Shown here in pieces: positions 1 to 5,918 of a DNA stretch of 64,000 bases (position 1 is its first letter; each line of letters begins with the position of its first letter). Origin of the DNA: Anaerohalosphaeraceae bacterium (GTDB lineage: Bacteria; Planctomycetota; Phycisphaerae; Sedimentisphaerales; Anaerohalosphaeraceae); assembly GCA_037479115.1 (NCBI GenBank), contig JBBFLK010000009.1:1-64000 (forward strand). Reading direction: 5' to 3'. Under the pieces are notes generated by a model. It made no database searches and was not told the origin of the DNA. It saw only the letters and a list, made by a program, of their open reading frames with translations. Made by a program: the position numbers and the translations under genes.

Positions 1-36
1 GTTGTGAATTGACAGCAGGTCGGGATCAATTACACT
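1..36 (+). promoter_or_regulatory. Promoter embedded in every CRISPR repeat (first copy shown)
   Basis: Repeat bases 9-14 are TTGACA, a perfect sigma-70 -35 box. Bases 31-36 are TACACT, a good -10 box, 16 bases downstream. The same pair occurs in all 19 repeats. Transcription would start about seven bases into each spacer, giving a crRNA with roughly 23 spacer bases. Repeat-borne promoters of this general design are known from Neisseria type II-C arrays, where the -10 also sits at the 3' end of the repeat. Use here is inferred, not shown. Confidence 0.7.
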
Positions 37-1220
37 AGTAGTCAATGAGCCGATTTTTAACAGCCAGTTGTGAATTGACAGCAGGTCGGGATCAATTACA
101 CTAGTAGTCAATGAGCCGATTTTTAACAGCCAGTTGTGAATTGACAGCAGGTCGGGATCAATTACACTTCCCTCGTGCGTATACACAAGATTTGCAGCGT
201 TGTGAATTGACAGCAGGTCGGGATCAATTACACTGTCTGAATCGGCAGATACTCATCGGCCCTCGTTGTGAATTGACAGCAGGTCGGGATCAATTACACT
301 AGTAGTCAATGAGCCGATTTTTAACAGCCAGTTGTGAATTGACAGCAGGTCGGGATCAATTACACTTCCCTCGTGCGTATACACAAGATTTGCAGCGTTG
401 TGAATTGACAGCAGGTCGGGATCAATTACACTCCTGCTTGGTGTATTCGACTTAACGAAATGTTGTGAATTGACAGCAGGTCGGGATCAATTACACTTAA
501 AAAAAATAAGGAGGACCATACCAGACAGTTGTGAATTGACAGCAGGTCGGGATCAATTACACTGACTACCACATGCGAAAGAACAAAGCAGCCGTTGTGA
601 ATTGACAGCAGGTCGGGATCAATTACACTTTTTCTCCTTTTTTCAGGGGGGCTGGATCGGTTGTGAATTGACAGCAGGTCGGGATCAATTACACTTTAAT
701 TCCACAGACCAAATGACATTCTCAGTTGTGAATTGACAGCAGGTCGGGATCAATTACACTTCATCAGCGGATTAATCCTGATGCTGCTGAGTTGTGAATT
801 GACAGCAGGTCGGGATCAATTACACTGGGTGGACAGAAACACTCACCGTTGGTATCGTTGTGAATTGACAGCAGGTCGGGATCAATTACACTACAAGTCA
901 AACTGGCTTCTGATGCCGAATCGTTGTGAATTGACAGCAGGTCGGGATCAATTACACTATGTTCTATGACATGCTGGGGAATCTGCCGGTTGTGAATTGA
1001 CAGCAGGTCGGGATCAATTACACTACAAGATTATTGCGGGCCTGCTCATAGTTTGTTGTGAATTGACAGCAGGTCGGGATCAATTACACTTTCTGCGTCT
1101 CGTCAAGGAGCAGCGATGTGTTGTGAATTGACAGCAGGTCGGGATCAATTACACTGGATCGGATGTCTGCCGAGACGGCTCGGAGTTGTGAATTGACAGC
1201 AGGTCGGGATCAATTACACT
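1..1220 (+). CRISPR. Type II-C CRISPR array, 19 repeats, truncated by window start
   Basis: Nineteen identical 36-base repeats start at 1, 67, 133, 199, 265, 331, 397, 462, 528, 594, 660, 725, 791, 857, 923, 989, 1055, 1120 and 1185. Each begins GTTGTGAATTGACAGC and ends ATCAATTACACT. The 18 spacers are 29 or 30 bases long. The spacers at 103 and 301 repeat the one at 37, and the spacer at 367 repeats the one at 169, leaving 15 different spacers. The plus strand is the crRNA sense strand, because the 5' part of the repeat pairs with the 3' part of the tracrRNA anti-repeat at 5803-5836. The last repeat at 1185-1220 is not degenerate. The window opens exactly on a repeat, so the array probably continues to the left. 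Confidence 0.98.
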
Positions 1221-1229
1221 AGTCCGTTT

Positions 1230-1256
1230 GCAAGTCTTTTATATAAAAAGGCTTGC
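1230..1256. terminator. Hairpin at the edge of the CRISPR array
   Basis: GCAAG at 1230-1234 pairs with CTTGC at 1252-1256, and the stem continues through a T-G pair and CTTTT with AAAAG, giving about 11 pairs around a five-base loop. It starts ten bases after the last repeat. There is no U-run on the plus side, so it may be a weak or factor-assisted stop for array transcription, or an acquisition-end structure. Confidence 0.45.
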
Positions 1257-1259
1257 GAG

Positions 1260-1286
1260 AAAAACAGCTCAAAATAATTCGAGCTG
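1260..1286 (-). terminator. Intrinsic terminator of the cas operon
   Basis: Read on the minus strand, CAGCTC and GAGCTG form a six-base-pair stem around a ten-base loop that contains the end of cas2, followed by TTTTT (plus-strand A-run 1260-1264). It ends the cas9-cas1-cas2 transcript as it converges on the array. Confidence 0.55.
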
Positions 1287-1598
1287 AGCGGGGGGCGGAG
1301 GGGTGGGTTTGCGCCGTTTTCCGAAAAAAATTTGCATTTTTTCAAATTGTTTTTCCGTAACGTGTATAATACGGACTTCTCCTTCAGGAGGCAAAAAAGA
1401 ACAGACTCGCTTACAGTGCACGTGTGCATTTTCTTCACTGGCACAATGCCTTGCATATACAGAATATTGTAACATCGTAAACCCATCCTGTACAAGGTTT
1501 TTCCGAAAATCGGCATAATCTTTTCGCGCCTTTTTCGTATCAACCGGCAAATCAAACATCACCAAAATCCACACGGTTCTATACCCGCTTACATACAT
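1269..1598 (-). CDS. cas2: CRISPR-associated endonuclease Cas2
   Basis: The 109-residue product has the Cas2 ferredoxin-like core near the N-terminus: WILVMFDLPV, with the conserved Asp after the first strand, then KARKDYADFRKNLVQDGF. Cas2 dimers bridge Cas1 dimers during spacer integration. An ATG at 1598 was chosen because it overlaps the cas1 stop by ten bases (ATGTATGTAA). A longer frame to 1640 would overlap cas1 by 52 bases and add 14 unconserved residues. The C-terminus is proline-rich (KPTPPPPAQLELF). Hand counts of two 60-base stretches give 30 and 38% G+C, much lower than cas1 next door. Confidence 0.92.
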   Translation of the reverse strand: MYVSGYRTVWILVMFDLPVDTKKARKDYADFRKNLVQDGFTMLQYSVYARHCASEENAHVHCKRVCSFLPPEGEVRIIHVTEKQFEKMQIFFGKRRKPTPPPPAQLELF

Positions 1599-2488
1599 AA
1601 CTGAGGCAAATCCAAGTATTTCTGTTCTCCAGCGAAACATCGGACCAGGGAGGCGGCAGTGCGGTGAAGGGCAACCATCAGGGGACCTTTGAAACCGCCG
1701 ACCGTGACGGAGCGGTAAAGGACTTCCAGAAGAGCGGCCTTGGTTTCTTTGGTCAGCTGGCCGTCGGAGGGGCCGCAGCGAGTGTACATGTCCCGGACCT
1801 TTTCTTCAACAAAACCGCGGAAGGGCTCAATGAGGTCATCGGCCAGGGCAAAGGCGTTGTACCGATTGCGGTGATGAATGCCGAGGGTCGGCAGCAGCCC
1901 CGCACTGCACAGGGCCCGGGCAACGGCGGAACGCAGGACGATATAGCCGTAATTGAGCAGGTGATTGGGCGGAGGACCTTCTCGGTGCCTGCGAAAGGAG
2001 GGGTCCTGCAGAAAGGCGGGCCAGAACCGGGCAGAGGCCTGGGCCTCCACATTTTCGGGGTCGCCGGAGCGGACGCGTCGGCGGAGGGCCATCAGGACCC
2101 GATATGTCTGTTGGTCCGAGCGGACCAGATGGGCCTGATGGGCGATTTTGGCCTGGACAATCTGCTTCCAGAGGCGTTTTTTGAGGGATTCGCCGGCGGC
2201 AATCTGGTCCCGAAAGCGTTCGGCCTGAACGGCGTTGGACTCGAGGGGCAACAGGAGTCCGGCGGGCAGGTGTCTGCCGTTGCAGACGACCACGGCGGCC
2301 CCCTGCTCTAATAGAACGGTCAGGACGGAATGGGTATAGGTGACGGCGGGATTGTCAATCAGCAGGACGCCGATATCCTCACAGGGAATCCGGCCTTTGA
2401 CCTGTCCGTCCTGCCGGACAAGCAGCTGTCCCAGATGGACCGATAAAAACGTCCCTGCTGTGGAGCATTCGACAACCCGTTTAATCAC
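1589..2488 (-). CDS. cas1: CRISPR-associated integrase Cas1 (type II)
   Basis: This is the metal-dependent integrase that inserts new spacers together with Cas2. The N-terminal beta domain reads RVVECSTAGTFLSVHLGQLL. The helical catalytic domain has the Glu in DPENVEAQASARFW and the His and acidic residues in HHRNRYNAFALADDLIEPF, all in the expected order. A GTG at 2488 was chosen: it has GAGGG seven bases upstream and gives the usual type II Cas1 start (VIKRVVECS). A TTG at 2527 would add 13 residues. It lies 63 bases after the cas9 stop and overlaps cas2. The gene is GC-rich (two hand-counted stretches 63 and 73%), in sharp contrast to cas9 and cas2. Confidence 0.93.
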   Translation of the reverse strand: MIKRVVECSTAGTFLSVHLGQLLVRQDGQVKGRIPCEDIGVLLIDNPAVTYTHSVLTVLLEQGAAVVVCNGRHLPAGLLLPLESNAVQAERFRDQIAAGESLKKRLWKQIVQAKIAHQAHLVRSDQQTYRVLMALRRRVRSGDPENVEAQASARFWPAFLQDPSFRRHREGPPPNHLLNYGYIVLRSAVARALCSAGLLPTLGIHHRNRYNAFALADDLIEPFRGFVEEKVRDMYTRCGPSDGQLTKETKAALLEVLYRSVTVGGFKGPLMVALHRTAASLVRCFAGEQKYLDLPQLCM

Positions 2489-2551
2489 GACCCAGCCCTC
2501 GCAGTTCTGCGAGGACTGTATCGGCAACTGCAGCAGTGTTCTTAATCTGCA

Positions 2552-5500
2552 CTAATCATTGGCACGGCGGATTCTGCCTAACGGGTCTATCGTAACTTTT
2601 TGAAGGATACGTTCTGGAAAACGCTGGAGGTCGGTCAGTCTCCACTCCCTTCGCAGAGCATTTTTTTGCTCTCCTTCGAGCCGGACATCCGCCAAATGAA
2701 TCGGTTTGGCTTCCATATCAATCTTTTTGGGATTTTCGGGGTCTCCGGATATTCCGGTAACACGCACCAAACATACCTGTCCGCTTTTGCCTTTCATCCA
2801 AACTGTTTCCCCTTTTGAGAGAGACATAATAAATTCAGCATTCTGATAGTCGGATGACAGAAAGCGTTTCAGGATGATCGGCTGTTTATTTTTAATCCTT
2901 TGAGCAGCCTGCCACATCGAACAGGGAAGACACAGAAAAACCGTTTTCCCTCCGGCATTTTTTGCCTTATAAAATTCGATATGATGATTCTCTTCTGATT
3001 TAACCCAGACTTTGTTGGTAAAGGGGCGGAGCGTTTCTCCCGATGACTCTCGAATCAGAATCGGATTTGAAAGCGTGTTCCAGATTCTGACACTGTAAAT
3101 CGGAATATCCGGATTTCGCCGGAGCAGCAGAGGAGTTTCGAAAGCCTTGGCGGCATCTCCGTCATATTCATAAAGCCGCTGCCGAACAAGACCGCGGATG
3201 TGAGGGTCACAAATCCTTTCTGCTTCCTCCTGTGTTATTTTGGCAAGTTGTCTTCGCGTTATATATTTGCCTTTCCAGAGACCGTTCTCTTCGAGAAAAT
3301 AATTGGTTTCCTGATGGAGCGCACCTTTCACTTTCCGCTGGACACGATGAGAGATATTAACACTCTGTACAGCCTGCTTTAGCTGGTTCCGAAAATCTTC
3401 CCAAGGCTCAGCAATCGGGGCTAAAGATGGTCTTTGGGGCCAGTTTTGCTGAAGGGTCTTCGTTATTTTCTGGATAAGGGCTGGTTTCGTGAGAGCCACG
3501 ACGGCGGCATCAACGGCATGATGCCGCAGATCTTCTCTGTTTTTGGGACCGGCGCCGCCATCTCGCAAAACCGCATTCAACCCCCACAGATTTCTTAACT
3601 CCGCCGTGATGCCGCCTTTTGTAGTACGAACCCTGTATTCGGCTTCCTGTGGAGGATACAGTTGCTGAAGATAGGACCGAATCACACGCGCGGCATAGGC
3701 TGTATCCTGAAGAAGACGTTTATTTTGGTATTTCTCCGCAATTTCTTCATTGCGTGTGCAAAATCGATCCCACTTCTCATCTGTGAAGCCAAATGCGTTA
3801 TGAAAATGAAACTCACAGATTTGCTCCCAGCGTTCACTATGCTCTCCAAGCCAGGAAATCGGCGTATTTTGCTTCTTGTCCTGATTGGCAGAAGCAAAAC
3901 ACACTACTTTATTTTCCAACGAGTTATCCAGACTCATCGAATACGGTAAAATATGATCAATTTCCACCTCTCTTGTGAACAAGATGTATGAAGGAATTTT
4001 TCTGCACGTGTAAGGACAGTATTCTTTTTGGGATTTCCAGAGACGGTATTTCAAAACATCTGTTTCGGAAATATCAACATCCGGTTCCCAACCCATCATT
4101 TCACGAATTGCCTGTCTTGCTTTGTCCCGCTCCTGCTGATTTTTGGCTTGGTTTTCAAGAATTTCCTGACGCTGTAGTTTTGATGCTTTCATTGGCGCTG
4201 CTGTTTCGACCACGATTTCCGTCGGCACTCCTTTTTCCTTGATCAGCAAATTGATCACTTTGCGAAGCTGAACCAGCACAGAACGCACCACAGGATTTGG
4301 TATCGAAAACCCATTTTCTTTGACCGGCAAGGGAAGAAAATTCAATTGCCTCATTTTCCGTGAGAAACCGGCCTGCTGAACAGCTTCATAAAGATTTTTG
4401 CCTTGTTCCAAAGCCGGCAGTATTTTCTCTAACGCTTCTCTGCTGTAAGCGCAGTATCCCTCAGGCTCCTTCAGTTTTTCGGGCCATTCATCTCTCTTAA
4501 AATGCAAGCCATACTGATTGGCAAGCACCGCCTCTACTTGCTGCTTGGTTCGCTTCTCATCAAGAAATTCCCGCAATATCCGCCAGACTTCGTCTTTGTG
4601 GGATTCCTCCAGATTAAGCCACCGATTCTTGTCAAAAAAAGCAGCGCTCACAAGCAGAGAGTCAATTTCATTGCCAAGCATTTTGTCATTTGTTTTGTAT
4701 TGAAGATTAAATTTCTTTTTTGCTCCTTCCGGTCCCCATAATTTTTCTCTGATCTGGTCAAAGGAAAGTTCTTTTTTCACCGTTAATAGTTCAATAAGAA
4801 CTTTTCTTTCCCGAGGAGACAGAGGATATCCATCTACAAGCAGGTCGTTTACTTTTTGTAAAAGGCGGAATTTCTGTGCTGCACGTTCCGCCCACGGGCA
4901 TCGCGGTTTGCCGGTGATCAGTTCACAGGTGCCTATAATTTTTTTCTTTTTCCGATTGCTGAGTTCAAAAGGAATTTGAGCAAATAACACCAAAGTCAAT
5001 TCATCATAAAATTCCTTCGTTAAAACAGCAGGGTAATACGGAGCCTGAATAGTCCAGATTCGAGTCAGTTCGTCTATATAGTGCTTCCGCTGTGCAATCC
5101 AACGATACTGGTCTCTTCGATTTCGGATTGCAGTGCGGGGATTTTCGGTTCTTCTTTCATACCAAAATTGTCCCAGTGTTTTTCCGTCTAACTCGCGATC
5201 CAGCCGCTCAATAGCCTCCTTCATCTCTGACGAGTTCTTTTCTTTAGTTAAAGGCTGCCTGCGGTTGCTTTTGAAGCCTCTGCGTTTGGCAAAATGTAAA
5301 AAGATTCGTGCAATTTCGAACAATTCTACTTTCGAGGAAGCTGCCCTTGCACGAATTTCGTAAGGATCAACTTGTTGGATAGTTTCAACATGTTGCAGGT
5401 CTTTTAACAAACCGTACTTTATCAAGAGTTCTACAACAGCTTTCCGTCTTGCCTTGGCCCGCCGTAATCTTCTCCGGAGAGATCGTTTTAATCTTCTGTT

Positions 5501-5713
5501 TAAATTTTTTGGGCTTTCCTGTTTCCCTTTCCCGAGGTTGTCTACACCGGCTGGAAAAACACGAGCCCCCAAAGCTGGGCATTTTATCCAGTTCCCTTTT
5601 TCATCTTTATCAAGAATAGTTGATATTGTTACGGGTTCATTGTTTTCATCCAAATCAAAAGCCGCCCAGCCAATTGAAGTAGGTCCCAAATCTATACCCA
5701 ATATATAGCCCAT
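2552..5713 (-). CDS. cas9: Type II-C Cas9 RNA-guided DNA endonuclease
   Basis: The 1053-residue protein is in the compact size range of II-C Cas9. RuvC-I is ILGIDLGPTSIGWA with Asp8. An arginine-rich bridge helix covers about residues 73-91. RuvC-II (EIVVETAAP) lies near residue 500. The HNH nuclease lies near 585 (EIDHILPYS, then NSLENKVVCFASANQDK). RuvC-III (HHAVDAAVVAL) lies near 730. All catalytic residues appear present. The rest should be the wedge and PAM-interacting domain; the PAM cannot be read from the sequence. The ATG at 5713 follows TAAGGAGG, an excellent ribosome site. cas9 is first in the operon, and no csn2 or cas4 is present, which fits subtype II-C. The tracrRNA gene is divergent, 89 bases upstream. 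Confidence 0.97.
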   Translation of the reverse strand: MGYILGIDLGPTSIGWAAFDLDENNEPVTISTILDKDEKGNWIKCPALGARVFPAGVDNLGKGKQESPKNLNRRLKRSLRRRLRRAKARRKAVVELLIKYGLLKDLQHVETIQQVDPYEIRARAASSKVELFEIARIFLHFAKRRGFKSNRRQPLTKEKNSSEMKEAIERLDRELDGKTLGQFWYERRTENPRTAIRNRRDQYRWIAQRKHYIDELTRIWTIQAPYYPAVLTKEFYDELTLVLFAQIPFELSNRKKKKIIGTCELITGKPRCPWAERAAQKFRLLQKVNDLLVDGYPLSPRERKVLIELLTVKKELSFDQIREKLWGPEGAKKKFNLQYKTNDKMLGNEIDSLLVSAAFFDKNRWLNLEESHKDEVWRILREFLDEKRTKQQVEAVLANQYGLHFKRDEWPEKLKEPEGYCAYSREALEKILPALEQGKNLYEAVQQAGFSRKMRQLNFLPLPVKENGFSIPNPVVRSVLVQLRKVINLLIKEKGVPTEIVVETAAPMKASKLQRQEILENQAKNQQERDKARQAIREMMGWEPDVDISETDVLKYRLWKSQKEYCPYTCRKIPSYILFTREVEIDHILPYSMSLDNSLENKVVCFASANQDKKQNTPISWLGEHSERWEQICEFHFHNAFGFTDEKWDRFCTRNEEIAEKYQNKRLLQDTAYAARVIRSYLQQLYPPQEAEYRVRTTKGGITAELRNLWGLNAVLRDGGAGPKNREDLRHHAVDAAVVALTKPALIQKITKTLQQNWPQRPSLAPIAEPWEDFRNQLKQAVQSVNISHRVQRKVKGALHQETNYFLEENGLWKGKYITRRQLAKITQEEAERICDPHIRGLVRQRLYEYDGDAAKAFETPLLLRRNPDIPIYSVRIWNTLSNPILIRESSGETLRPFTNKVWVKSEENHHIEFYKAKNAGGKTVFLCLPCSMWQAAQRIKNKQPIILKRFLSSDYQNAEFIMSLSKGETVWMKGKSGQVCLVRVTGISGDPENPKKIDMEAKPIHLADVRLEGEQKNALRREWRLTDLQRFPERILQKVTIDPLGRIRRAND

Positions 5714-5766
5714 TTGTATGTTCCTCCTTAACTTTCCTTTTTTAGCGGAATTTTACAAAAAAAGGC

Positions 5767-5796
5767 TTGATTTGTCTATTCTTGCCGATTTAAAAT
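5767..5796 (+). promoter_or_regulatory. Promoter of the tracrRNA
   Basis: TTGATT (5767-5772) and TAAAAT (5791-5796) are 18 bases apart. The expected start is seven bases downstream at about 5803, exactly where complementarity to the CRISPR repeat begins. Confidence 0.6.
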
Positions 5797-5802
5797 ACCT
5801 TC

Positions 5803-5918
5803 AGTGTAATTGATCCCGGCCCGCGCTTTTCACAATAAGAGAAGAGTCGTGGGCAAGCCCGAAAGGGCTGGCTCTGCGGAGCCTACCCAACGCGCCATCG
5901 AAAGAGGGCGCGTTTTTT
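5803..5918 (+). ncRNA. tracrRNA of the type II-C system
   Basis: The first 16 bases, AGTGTAATTGATCCCG, are a perfect reverse complement of the 3' end of the repeat. After an internal loop, TTCACAAT pairs with the repeat's first eight bases (one G-U pair). The anti-repeat runs into CAATAAG, the junction motif also seen in Neisseria tracrRNA. Downstream are a hairpin AGCCC-GAAA-GGGCT, a hairpin GGCTC-TGCG-GAGCC, flanking GGG and CCC that can close them into a junction, and a final stem CGCGCC/GGCGCG (5891-5912) followed by TTTTTT (5913-5918), an intrinsic terminator. The predicted length is about 116 bases. Confidence 0.9.

What the first reader, a model, noticed from the sequence alone, without database searches (positions are those of the whole stretch)
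1..1220. Every CRISPR repeat carries a near-consensus sigma-70 promoter
Repeat bases 9-14 (TTGACA) and 31-36 (TACACT) are 16 bases apart in all 19 copies. Neisseria type II-C repeats are known to hold a -10 element at the 3' end; here both boxes are inside the repeat and the -35 is perfect. Each spacer would be transcribed on its own, starting about seven bases in, so the array would need no leader promoter and perhaps no RNase III. hppA also has a TACACT -10 box at the same spacing, so the host polymerase may favour this form.
Basis: partly seen in the sequence, partly recalled or inferred. Interest (0 to 1): 0.7.

Follow-up and report, generated by a model that had tools for sequence, protein, structure and literature searches.

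The report
CRISPR array with promoter-bearing repeats
Each repeat of this Planctomycetota type II-C CRISPR array contains a promoter-like sequence, so every stored spacer can probably be transcribed on its own; this is already known from Neisseria and Campylobacter, and the one slightly unusual feature here is that the upstream (-35) box is also present and perfect.

Summary
All 19 copies of the 36-nt repeat (window 1-1220, + strand) read TTGACA-N16-TACACT, and 4 more identical copies lie at the end of another contig. A tracrRNA gene at 5803-5918 fixes the crRNA strand as +, the strand on which the boxes read. The array converges on cas2-cas1-cas9, the standard II-C layout. No promoter-like site precedes the array in the C19 flank or in the closest relative (G103), and the host has a canonical RpoD and TTGACA/TAnnnT promoters. 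Repeat-driven crRNA transcription is therefore the best explanation, but it is a known II-C trait (C. jejuni, N. meningitidis; -10 surveyed in 2015).

I tested whether the internal -35 is special. In 86 distinct non-Bacteroidota II-C repeats that carry the -10, TTG lies 16 or 17 nt upstream of it in 57. However, TTG at 9-11 is equally conserved in 24 of 27 Bacteroidota/Balneolota repeats that lack the -10, so its conservation does not show -35 selection. Perfect TTGACA occurs in only 5 of 89 non-Bacteroidota repeats. RNase III is present in the host, so its dispensability is untested. The idea that the host polymerase favours TACACT is not supported.

The parts
1..1220 (+). Type II-C CRISPR array, 19 identical 36-nt repeats, 18 spacers of 29-30 nt; truncated at the contig end (position 1)
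9..36 (+). Putative sigma-70 promoter of the first repeat copy: -35 TTGACA 9-14, N16, -10 TACACT 31-36; the same in each repeat (copies start at 1, 67, 133, 199, 265, 331, 397, 462, 528, 594, 660, 725, 791, 857, 923, 989, 1055, 1120, 1185). Predicted start near spacer base 7 (inferred)
1221..1268 (.). Flank between last repeat and cas2 stop; probable adaptation-side flank (AGTCCGTTTGC...; the C19 array is followed by AGTGCCGTTTCC...)
   Evidence: role inferred from the known 3'-end acquisition of II-C (PMC12638026, PMC12080349)
1269..1640 (-). cas2 (TIGR01573)
1589..2527 (-). cas1 (TIGR03639, type II Cas1)
2552..5713 (-). cas9, 1053 aa (TIGR01865, 608.6 bits)
5750..5778 (-). Putative promoter of the cas9-cas1-cas2 operon (TAGACA-N17-TAAAAT)
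5767..5796 (+). Putative tracrRNA promoter (TTGATT-N18-TAAAAT); predicted start about 5803, the first base of the anti-repeat
5803..5918 (+). tracrRNA gene: anti-repeat 5803-5836, hairpins, terminator hairpin 5889-5913 with T run 5913-5918
   Evidence: fold z = -4.66

Best explanation
This is a type II-C CRISPR-Cas9 locus (tracrRNA, cas9-cas1-cas2, convergent array) in which every repeat carries a sigma-70 promoter on the crRNA strand. RNA polymerase probably starts about seven bases into each spacer, runs through the following repeat, and the tracrRNA pairs with that repeat; RNase III or another nuclease then sets the 3' end. The array does not depend on an upstream leader promoter, and spacers near cas2 also receive read-through from upstream repeats. 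Shown: sequence of the boxes, strand, layout, tracrRNA, no upstream promoter-like site, host promoter type. Inferred: that the repeats are transcribed, the start position, and that the -35 contributes. The TTG part of the -35 is most likely an older feature shared by II-C repeats in general that happens to lie at -35 spacing; ACA completes it in this lineage.
For: Boxes in all 19 copies plus 4 on C19. Strand fixed by the anti-repeat AGTGTAATTGATCCCGG.. followed by hairpins and a terminator. The relative G103 (Cas9 55% identical) keeps TTGACA-N16-TACACT in all 6 repeats and has no promoter-like site upstream of its array. 86 of 89 distinct non-Bacteroidota II-C repeats keep T31, A32 and T36. 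Host: 137 non-array TTGACA-N15-19-TAnnnT sites against 69 for the reversed pattern, spacing peak 16-17; RpoD 2.4 and 4.2 motifs are canonical. Upstream flanks of II-C arrays show essentially no excess of promoter-like sites. Direct precedent: TEX-enriched crRNA starts at spacer position 5 in C. jejuni (PMC3656092); 5' RACE and a -10 survey (PMC4607530).
Against: No transcript data for this organism. TACACT is a weak -10 and rare in the host. N16 is one short of the most common host spacing. TTG conservation is explained without a promoter. In the host array the far upstream flank is known only if C19 is the other end of the same array.
Confidence: 0.78

Rival explanations
1. The TTG of the -35 (and part of its surroundings) is conserved because of the crRNA or the repeat DNA itself (crRNA:tracrRNA internal loop read by Cas9, or the Cas1-Cas2 integration site), and the -35 resemblance is incidental; the repeat is transcribed from its -10 alone, as in Neisseria and Campylobacter, or with help of the incidental -35.
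For: TTG at 9-11 is kept in 24 of 27 Bacteroidota/Balneolota repeats without a TAnnnT end. T9 and T10 are the usual unpaired positions of the repeat:anti-repeat duplex, mostly facing tracrRNA UU (about 40 of 60 distinct repeats). Positions 12-14 are not biased to ACA across II-C (C12 50 of 89, C14 44 of 89). No correlation between -35 and -10 quality (Spearman 0.06).
Against: In about 14 of 60 repeats the same TT faces AA and is paired, so the repeat side is kept while its RNA partner changes. When position 10 is G, TTG reappears at 8-10 (N17) and never downstream (N15 or shorter). Perfect TTGACA@9 occurs 4 times against 0.54 expected from columns, although three are from one order.
Confidence: 0.5
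2. The array is transcribed mainly as one long precursor from a promoter further upstream (beyond the contig end or beyond the flank read here), and all crRNAs are made by tracrRNA/RNase III processing.
For: RNase III gene present; the tracrRNA pairs with nearly the whole repeat; the 5' end of the C9 array is not in the assembly. Riemerella II-C was predicted to use leader promoters (PMC5006608).
Against: No promoter-like site upstream of the C19 array part or the G103 array; across 103 II-C arrays only 4 upstream flanks have a 10/12 site against 2.1 expected, and two of the 4 are script artefacts at contig edges. Convergent II-C arrays elsewhere start in each repeat (PMC3656092, PMC4607530).
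Confidence: 0.15
3. The promoter likeness is chance in an AT-rich-ended repeat and has no function.
For: Under II-C column composition a 10/12 match arises in 5.5% of repeats.
Against: T31/A32/T36 kept in 86 of 89 non-Bacteroidota repeats, the -10 positions that matter most; no 9/12 or better match on the reverse strand of any of the 89; experimental precedent in two genera.
Confidence: 0.05

Closest known systems
Campylobacter jejuni type II-C array (Dugar 2013, PMC3656092; 5' RACE in PMC4607530)
   Same: 36-nt repeats with a -10 box at the 3' end, convergent on cas genes, individual crRNA starts in spacers, tracrRNA
   Different: C. jejuni has an extended -10 (GGTAAAAT) and no TTG -35 in its repeat; here TTGACA is present and TGn is absent. 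Transcription here is not shown
Neisseria meningitidis / N. lactamica type II-C array (Zhang 2013, not held; repeat in PMC4607530 Table 1)
   Same: 36-nt repeat, -10 at bases 31-36 (TACAAT), leaderless repeat-driven transcription; RNase III reported dispensable (via PMC5006608 and PMC8616872)
   Different: Neisseria repeat has TGCTACAAT (extended -10) and no TTG at the -35 position
Type II-C repeat survey of Pearson et al. 2015 (PMC4607530), 58 II-C species including Planctomycetes
   Same: General -10 (gnTAnaaT) at the 3' end of II-C repeats and a convergent array
   Different: In the main text read, only the -10 is discussed; no -35 inside the repeat is described
Flavobacterium columnare and F. 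psychrophilum II-C arrays (PMC8092290, PMC10309648)
   Same: A TTG motif in the repeat proposed as the upstream (-33) promoter element; transcription toward the acquisition end
   Different: Those repeats lack the sigma-70 -10 and the host uses Bacteroidota promoters

Membership tests
Type II-C CRISPR-Cas | cas9, cas1, cas2 only; no csn2 or cas4 in the operon | tested here: met
   TIGR01865, TIGR03639, TIGR01573 over cut-off; the next genes are priA, argJ-like and hppA. A gene beyond the truncated array end is not excluded
Type II-C CRISPR-Cas | tracrRNA complementary to the repeat | tested here: met
   anti-repeat 5803-5836, terminator, fold z = -4.66
Type II-C CRISPR-Cas | array transcribed convergently to the cas operon | tested here: met
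   array +, cas genes -, strand from the tracrRNA
II-C arrays with repeat-borne promoters (Campylobacter/Neisseria kind) | -10 box at the 3' end of every repeat on the crRNA strand | tested here: met
   TACACT 31-36 in 19 + 4 copies
II-C arrays with repeat-borne promoters (Campylobacter/Neisseria kind) | no external promoter upstream of the array | tested here: inconclusive
   none found upstream of the C19 part or in G103, but the C9 end is truncated and the scan is by consensus only
II-C arrays with repeat-borne promoters (Campylobacter/Neisseria kind) | crRNA primary 5' ends (triphosphate) at spacer bases 5-8 | not testable with these tools
   no RNA data
II-C arrays with repeat-borne promoters (Campylobacter/Neisseria kind) | interference without RNase III | not testable with these tools
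   RNase III gene present; needs a mutant
II-C arrays with repeat-borne promoters (Campylobacter/Neisseria kind) | extended -10 (TGn), seen in 6 of the 7 published repeats with a 3' -10 (not a defining feature of the kind) | tested here: not met
   bases 28-30 are AAT; a full -35 is present instead (PMC4607530 Table 1)

The most novel reading that the evidence does not exclude
In a large branch of type II-C systems (Planctomycetota and neighbours) the repeat holds a complete, -35-dependent sigma-70 promoter whose TTG is at the same time the internal-loop element of the crRNA:tracrRNA duplex, in contrast to the -35-free extended -10 promoters of Neisseria and Campylobacter; one set of bases would serve both the promoter DNA and the guide RNA.
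Probability: 0.3. Interest if true: 0.5.

Novelty: new member of a known kind. Interest (0 to 1): 0.3.

Why it matters
If transcribed as predicted, the locus extends repeat-driven, leaderless crRNA production to Planctomycetota and offers a repeat with a full -35/-10 promoter, useful for testing how much of a II-C repeat is shaped by transcription and how much by guide-RNA structure. It does not change the known picture of II-C crRNA biogenesis.

Tried and rejected
(1) TTG at 9-11 as a selected -35: rejected as the main cause of its conservation, because repeats without the -10 keep it. (2) Two exclusive architectures (extended -10 versus -35): in my own 86 repeats TGn occurs in 7 of 57 with TTG and 8 of 29 without (p = 0.13); adding seven published repeats gives p = 0.005, but without correction for relatedness; kept only as a lead. 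(3) Compensation between -35 and -10 strength: no correlation. (4) Host preference for TACACT: not supported. (5) Protospacer matches of three cas2-side spacers in viral contigs: none, so no PAM or target. (6) A leader promoter upstream: none found. (8) In the flank test two of the four positives (L061, L263) have impossible positions caused by a script error at contig edges and should be ignored.

Full report
What is there. The window starts at the end of contig C9 of a 3.0-Mb, 52-contig genome. Bases 1-1220 hold 19 identical copies of GTTGTGAATTGACAGCAGGTCGGGATCAATTACACT with 29-30 nt spacers. TTGACA (9-14) and TACACT (31-36) are 16 nt apart in each. Four more copies lie at the end of contig C19; one spacer is shared between C19 and C9, so C19 is probably the upstream end of the same array or a second copy of it. 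On the - strand follow cas2, cas1 and a 1053-aa cas9.

Strand. Upstream of cas9, at 5803-5836 on the + strand, lies AGTGTAATTGATCCCGGCCCGCGCTTTTCACAAT, a degenerate reverse complement of the repeat, preceded by TTGATT-N18-TAAAAT and followed by hairpins and a terminator (fold z = -4.66). This tracrRNA fixes the crRNA strand as +, the strand of the promoter boxes. The array therefore runs toward cas2, against the cas operon, as in other II-C loci (PMC3936727, PMC4607530).

Is it a promoter? The host RpoD has canonical region 2.4 and 4.2 motifs (RQAITR, TRERVRQ; comparison with E. coli from memory). Its genome has 160 TTGACA-N15-19-TAnnnT sites, 23 of them in the array, against 69 for the reversed pattern, and among 81 listed non-array sites the spacing peaks at 16-17. 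No promoter-like site precedes the array on C19 or in the relative G103, whose six repeats keep TTGACA-N16-TACACT exactly. With the experimental precedent in C. jejuni, where primary crRNA 5' ends lie at spacer position 5 (PMC3656092), repeat-driven transcription is the best explanation. It is a prediction; no RNA was examined.

Is the internal -35 special? I collected Cas9 loci from the same order, 80 named II-C loci, and loci from the classes or phyla of three further genomes, extracted arrays and oriented repeats by anti-repeat and terminator; eight were re-oriented and two dropped by hand. This gave 127 distinct repeats of at least 36 nt. Of 89 outside Bacteroidota/Balneolota, 86 have T31, A32 and T36. 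In these 86, TTG lies at 9-11 (N16) in 45 and at 8-10 (N17) in 12; no repeat lacking these has TTG at 10 or 11, and the mean -35 score peaks at position 9. That looks like a -35. But of 27 Bacteroidota/Balneolota repeats that lack the TAnnnT end, 24 also have TTG at 9-11. TTG is thus a general feature of these repeats. T9 and T10 are the usual mismatched pair positions in the repeat:anti-repeat duplex, which suggests a guide-RNA role, though in about a quarter of repeats they are paired, so the RNA account is not complete either. The ACA that completes TTGACA is found, with TAnnnT, in five of the 89: this genome, G103, G154, a Zixibacteria MAG and G159 (shifted by one base). In 392 phylum genomes only this one and G103 have the pattern in an array. 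The Cas9 tree puts the window with G103 and G153 (TTGACT).

Prior art. Repeat promoters in II-C: PMC3656092, PMC4607530 (-10 in 58 II-C species), PMC8616872, PMC12080349. Acquisition at the 3' end: PMC12638026, PMC12080349. TTG in the repeat as an upstream promoter element: PMC8092290 and PMC10309648 for Flavobacterium. I found no paper that reports a perfect -35 inside a II-C repeat, but the library holds only open-licence papers and the key Neisseria paper is not in it.

The other claims. RNase III is encoded and the tracrRNA pairs with nearly the whole repeat, so processing is likely and independence from RNase III is untested. TACACT is not favoured by the host: one of 81 sites, C at position 5 in five. 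The hppA boxes exist.

Limits. The survey is seeded from this Cas9 branch and from a few groups, repeats are related, and counts are not corrected for phylogeny. Consensus scans are not proof of promoter activity.

Noticed in passing
window 37-66, 103-132, 301-330; 169-198, 367-396; 235-264 and L010 11140-11169: The same spacer occurs three times and another twice near the contig end, and one spacer is shared with the C19 array: array duplication, strain mixture or an assembly artefact.
   Followed up: partly
L010 10972-11255 (contig C19 end): The C19 array has 4 repeats and is followed by AGTGCCGTTTCC..., similar to the flank after the last C9 repeat (AGTCCGTTTGC...); just before its first repeat stands GTTGTGGCTTGCCAAGT, like the start of relatives' repeats.
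   Followed up: partly
Bacteroidota repeats, e.g. L263, L265, L268, L269, L240, L243, L247, L248, L254: 9 of 35 Bacteroidota II-C repeats contain TAnnTTTG, the Bacteroidota-specific -7 promoter box, against 1.8 expected in shuffles (maximum 8 in 300), 0 of 89 other II-C repeats and 0 on the reverse strand: repeat promoters may be matched to the host sigma factor. Related repeats, not corrected for phylogeny.
   Followed up: partly
L128, L129, L131, L136, L143, L244: Flavobacterial II-C arrays lie in the same direction as cas9 and end in GATATT instead of TAnnnT, unlike the convergent arrays.
   Followed up: partly
L059 (G154:C71): A repeat with TTGACA/TACACT close to that of G153 is paired with a Cas9 (1199 aa) from a different branch, which suggests repeat exchange or convergence between II-C loci of one order.
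   Followed up: no
window 1341-1370, +: A good promoter-like site (TTCAAA-N18-TATAAT) lies inside cas2, antisense to it.
   Followed up: no
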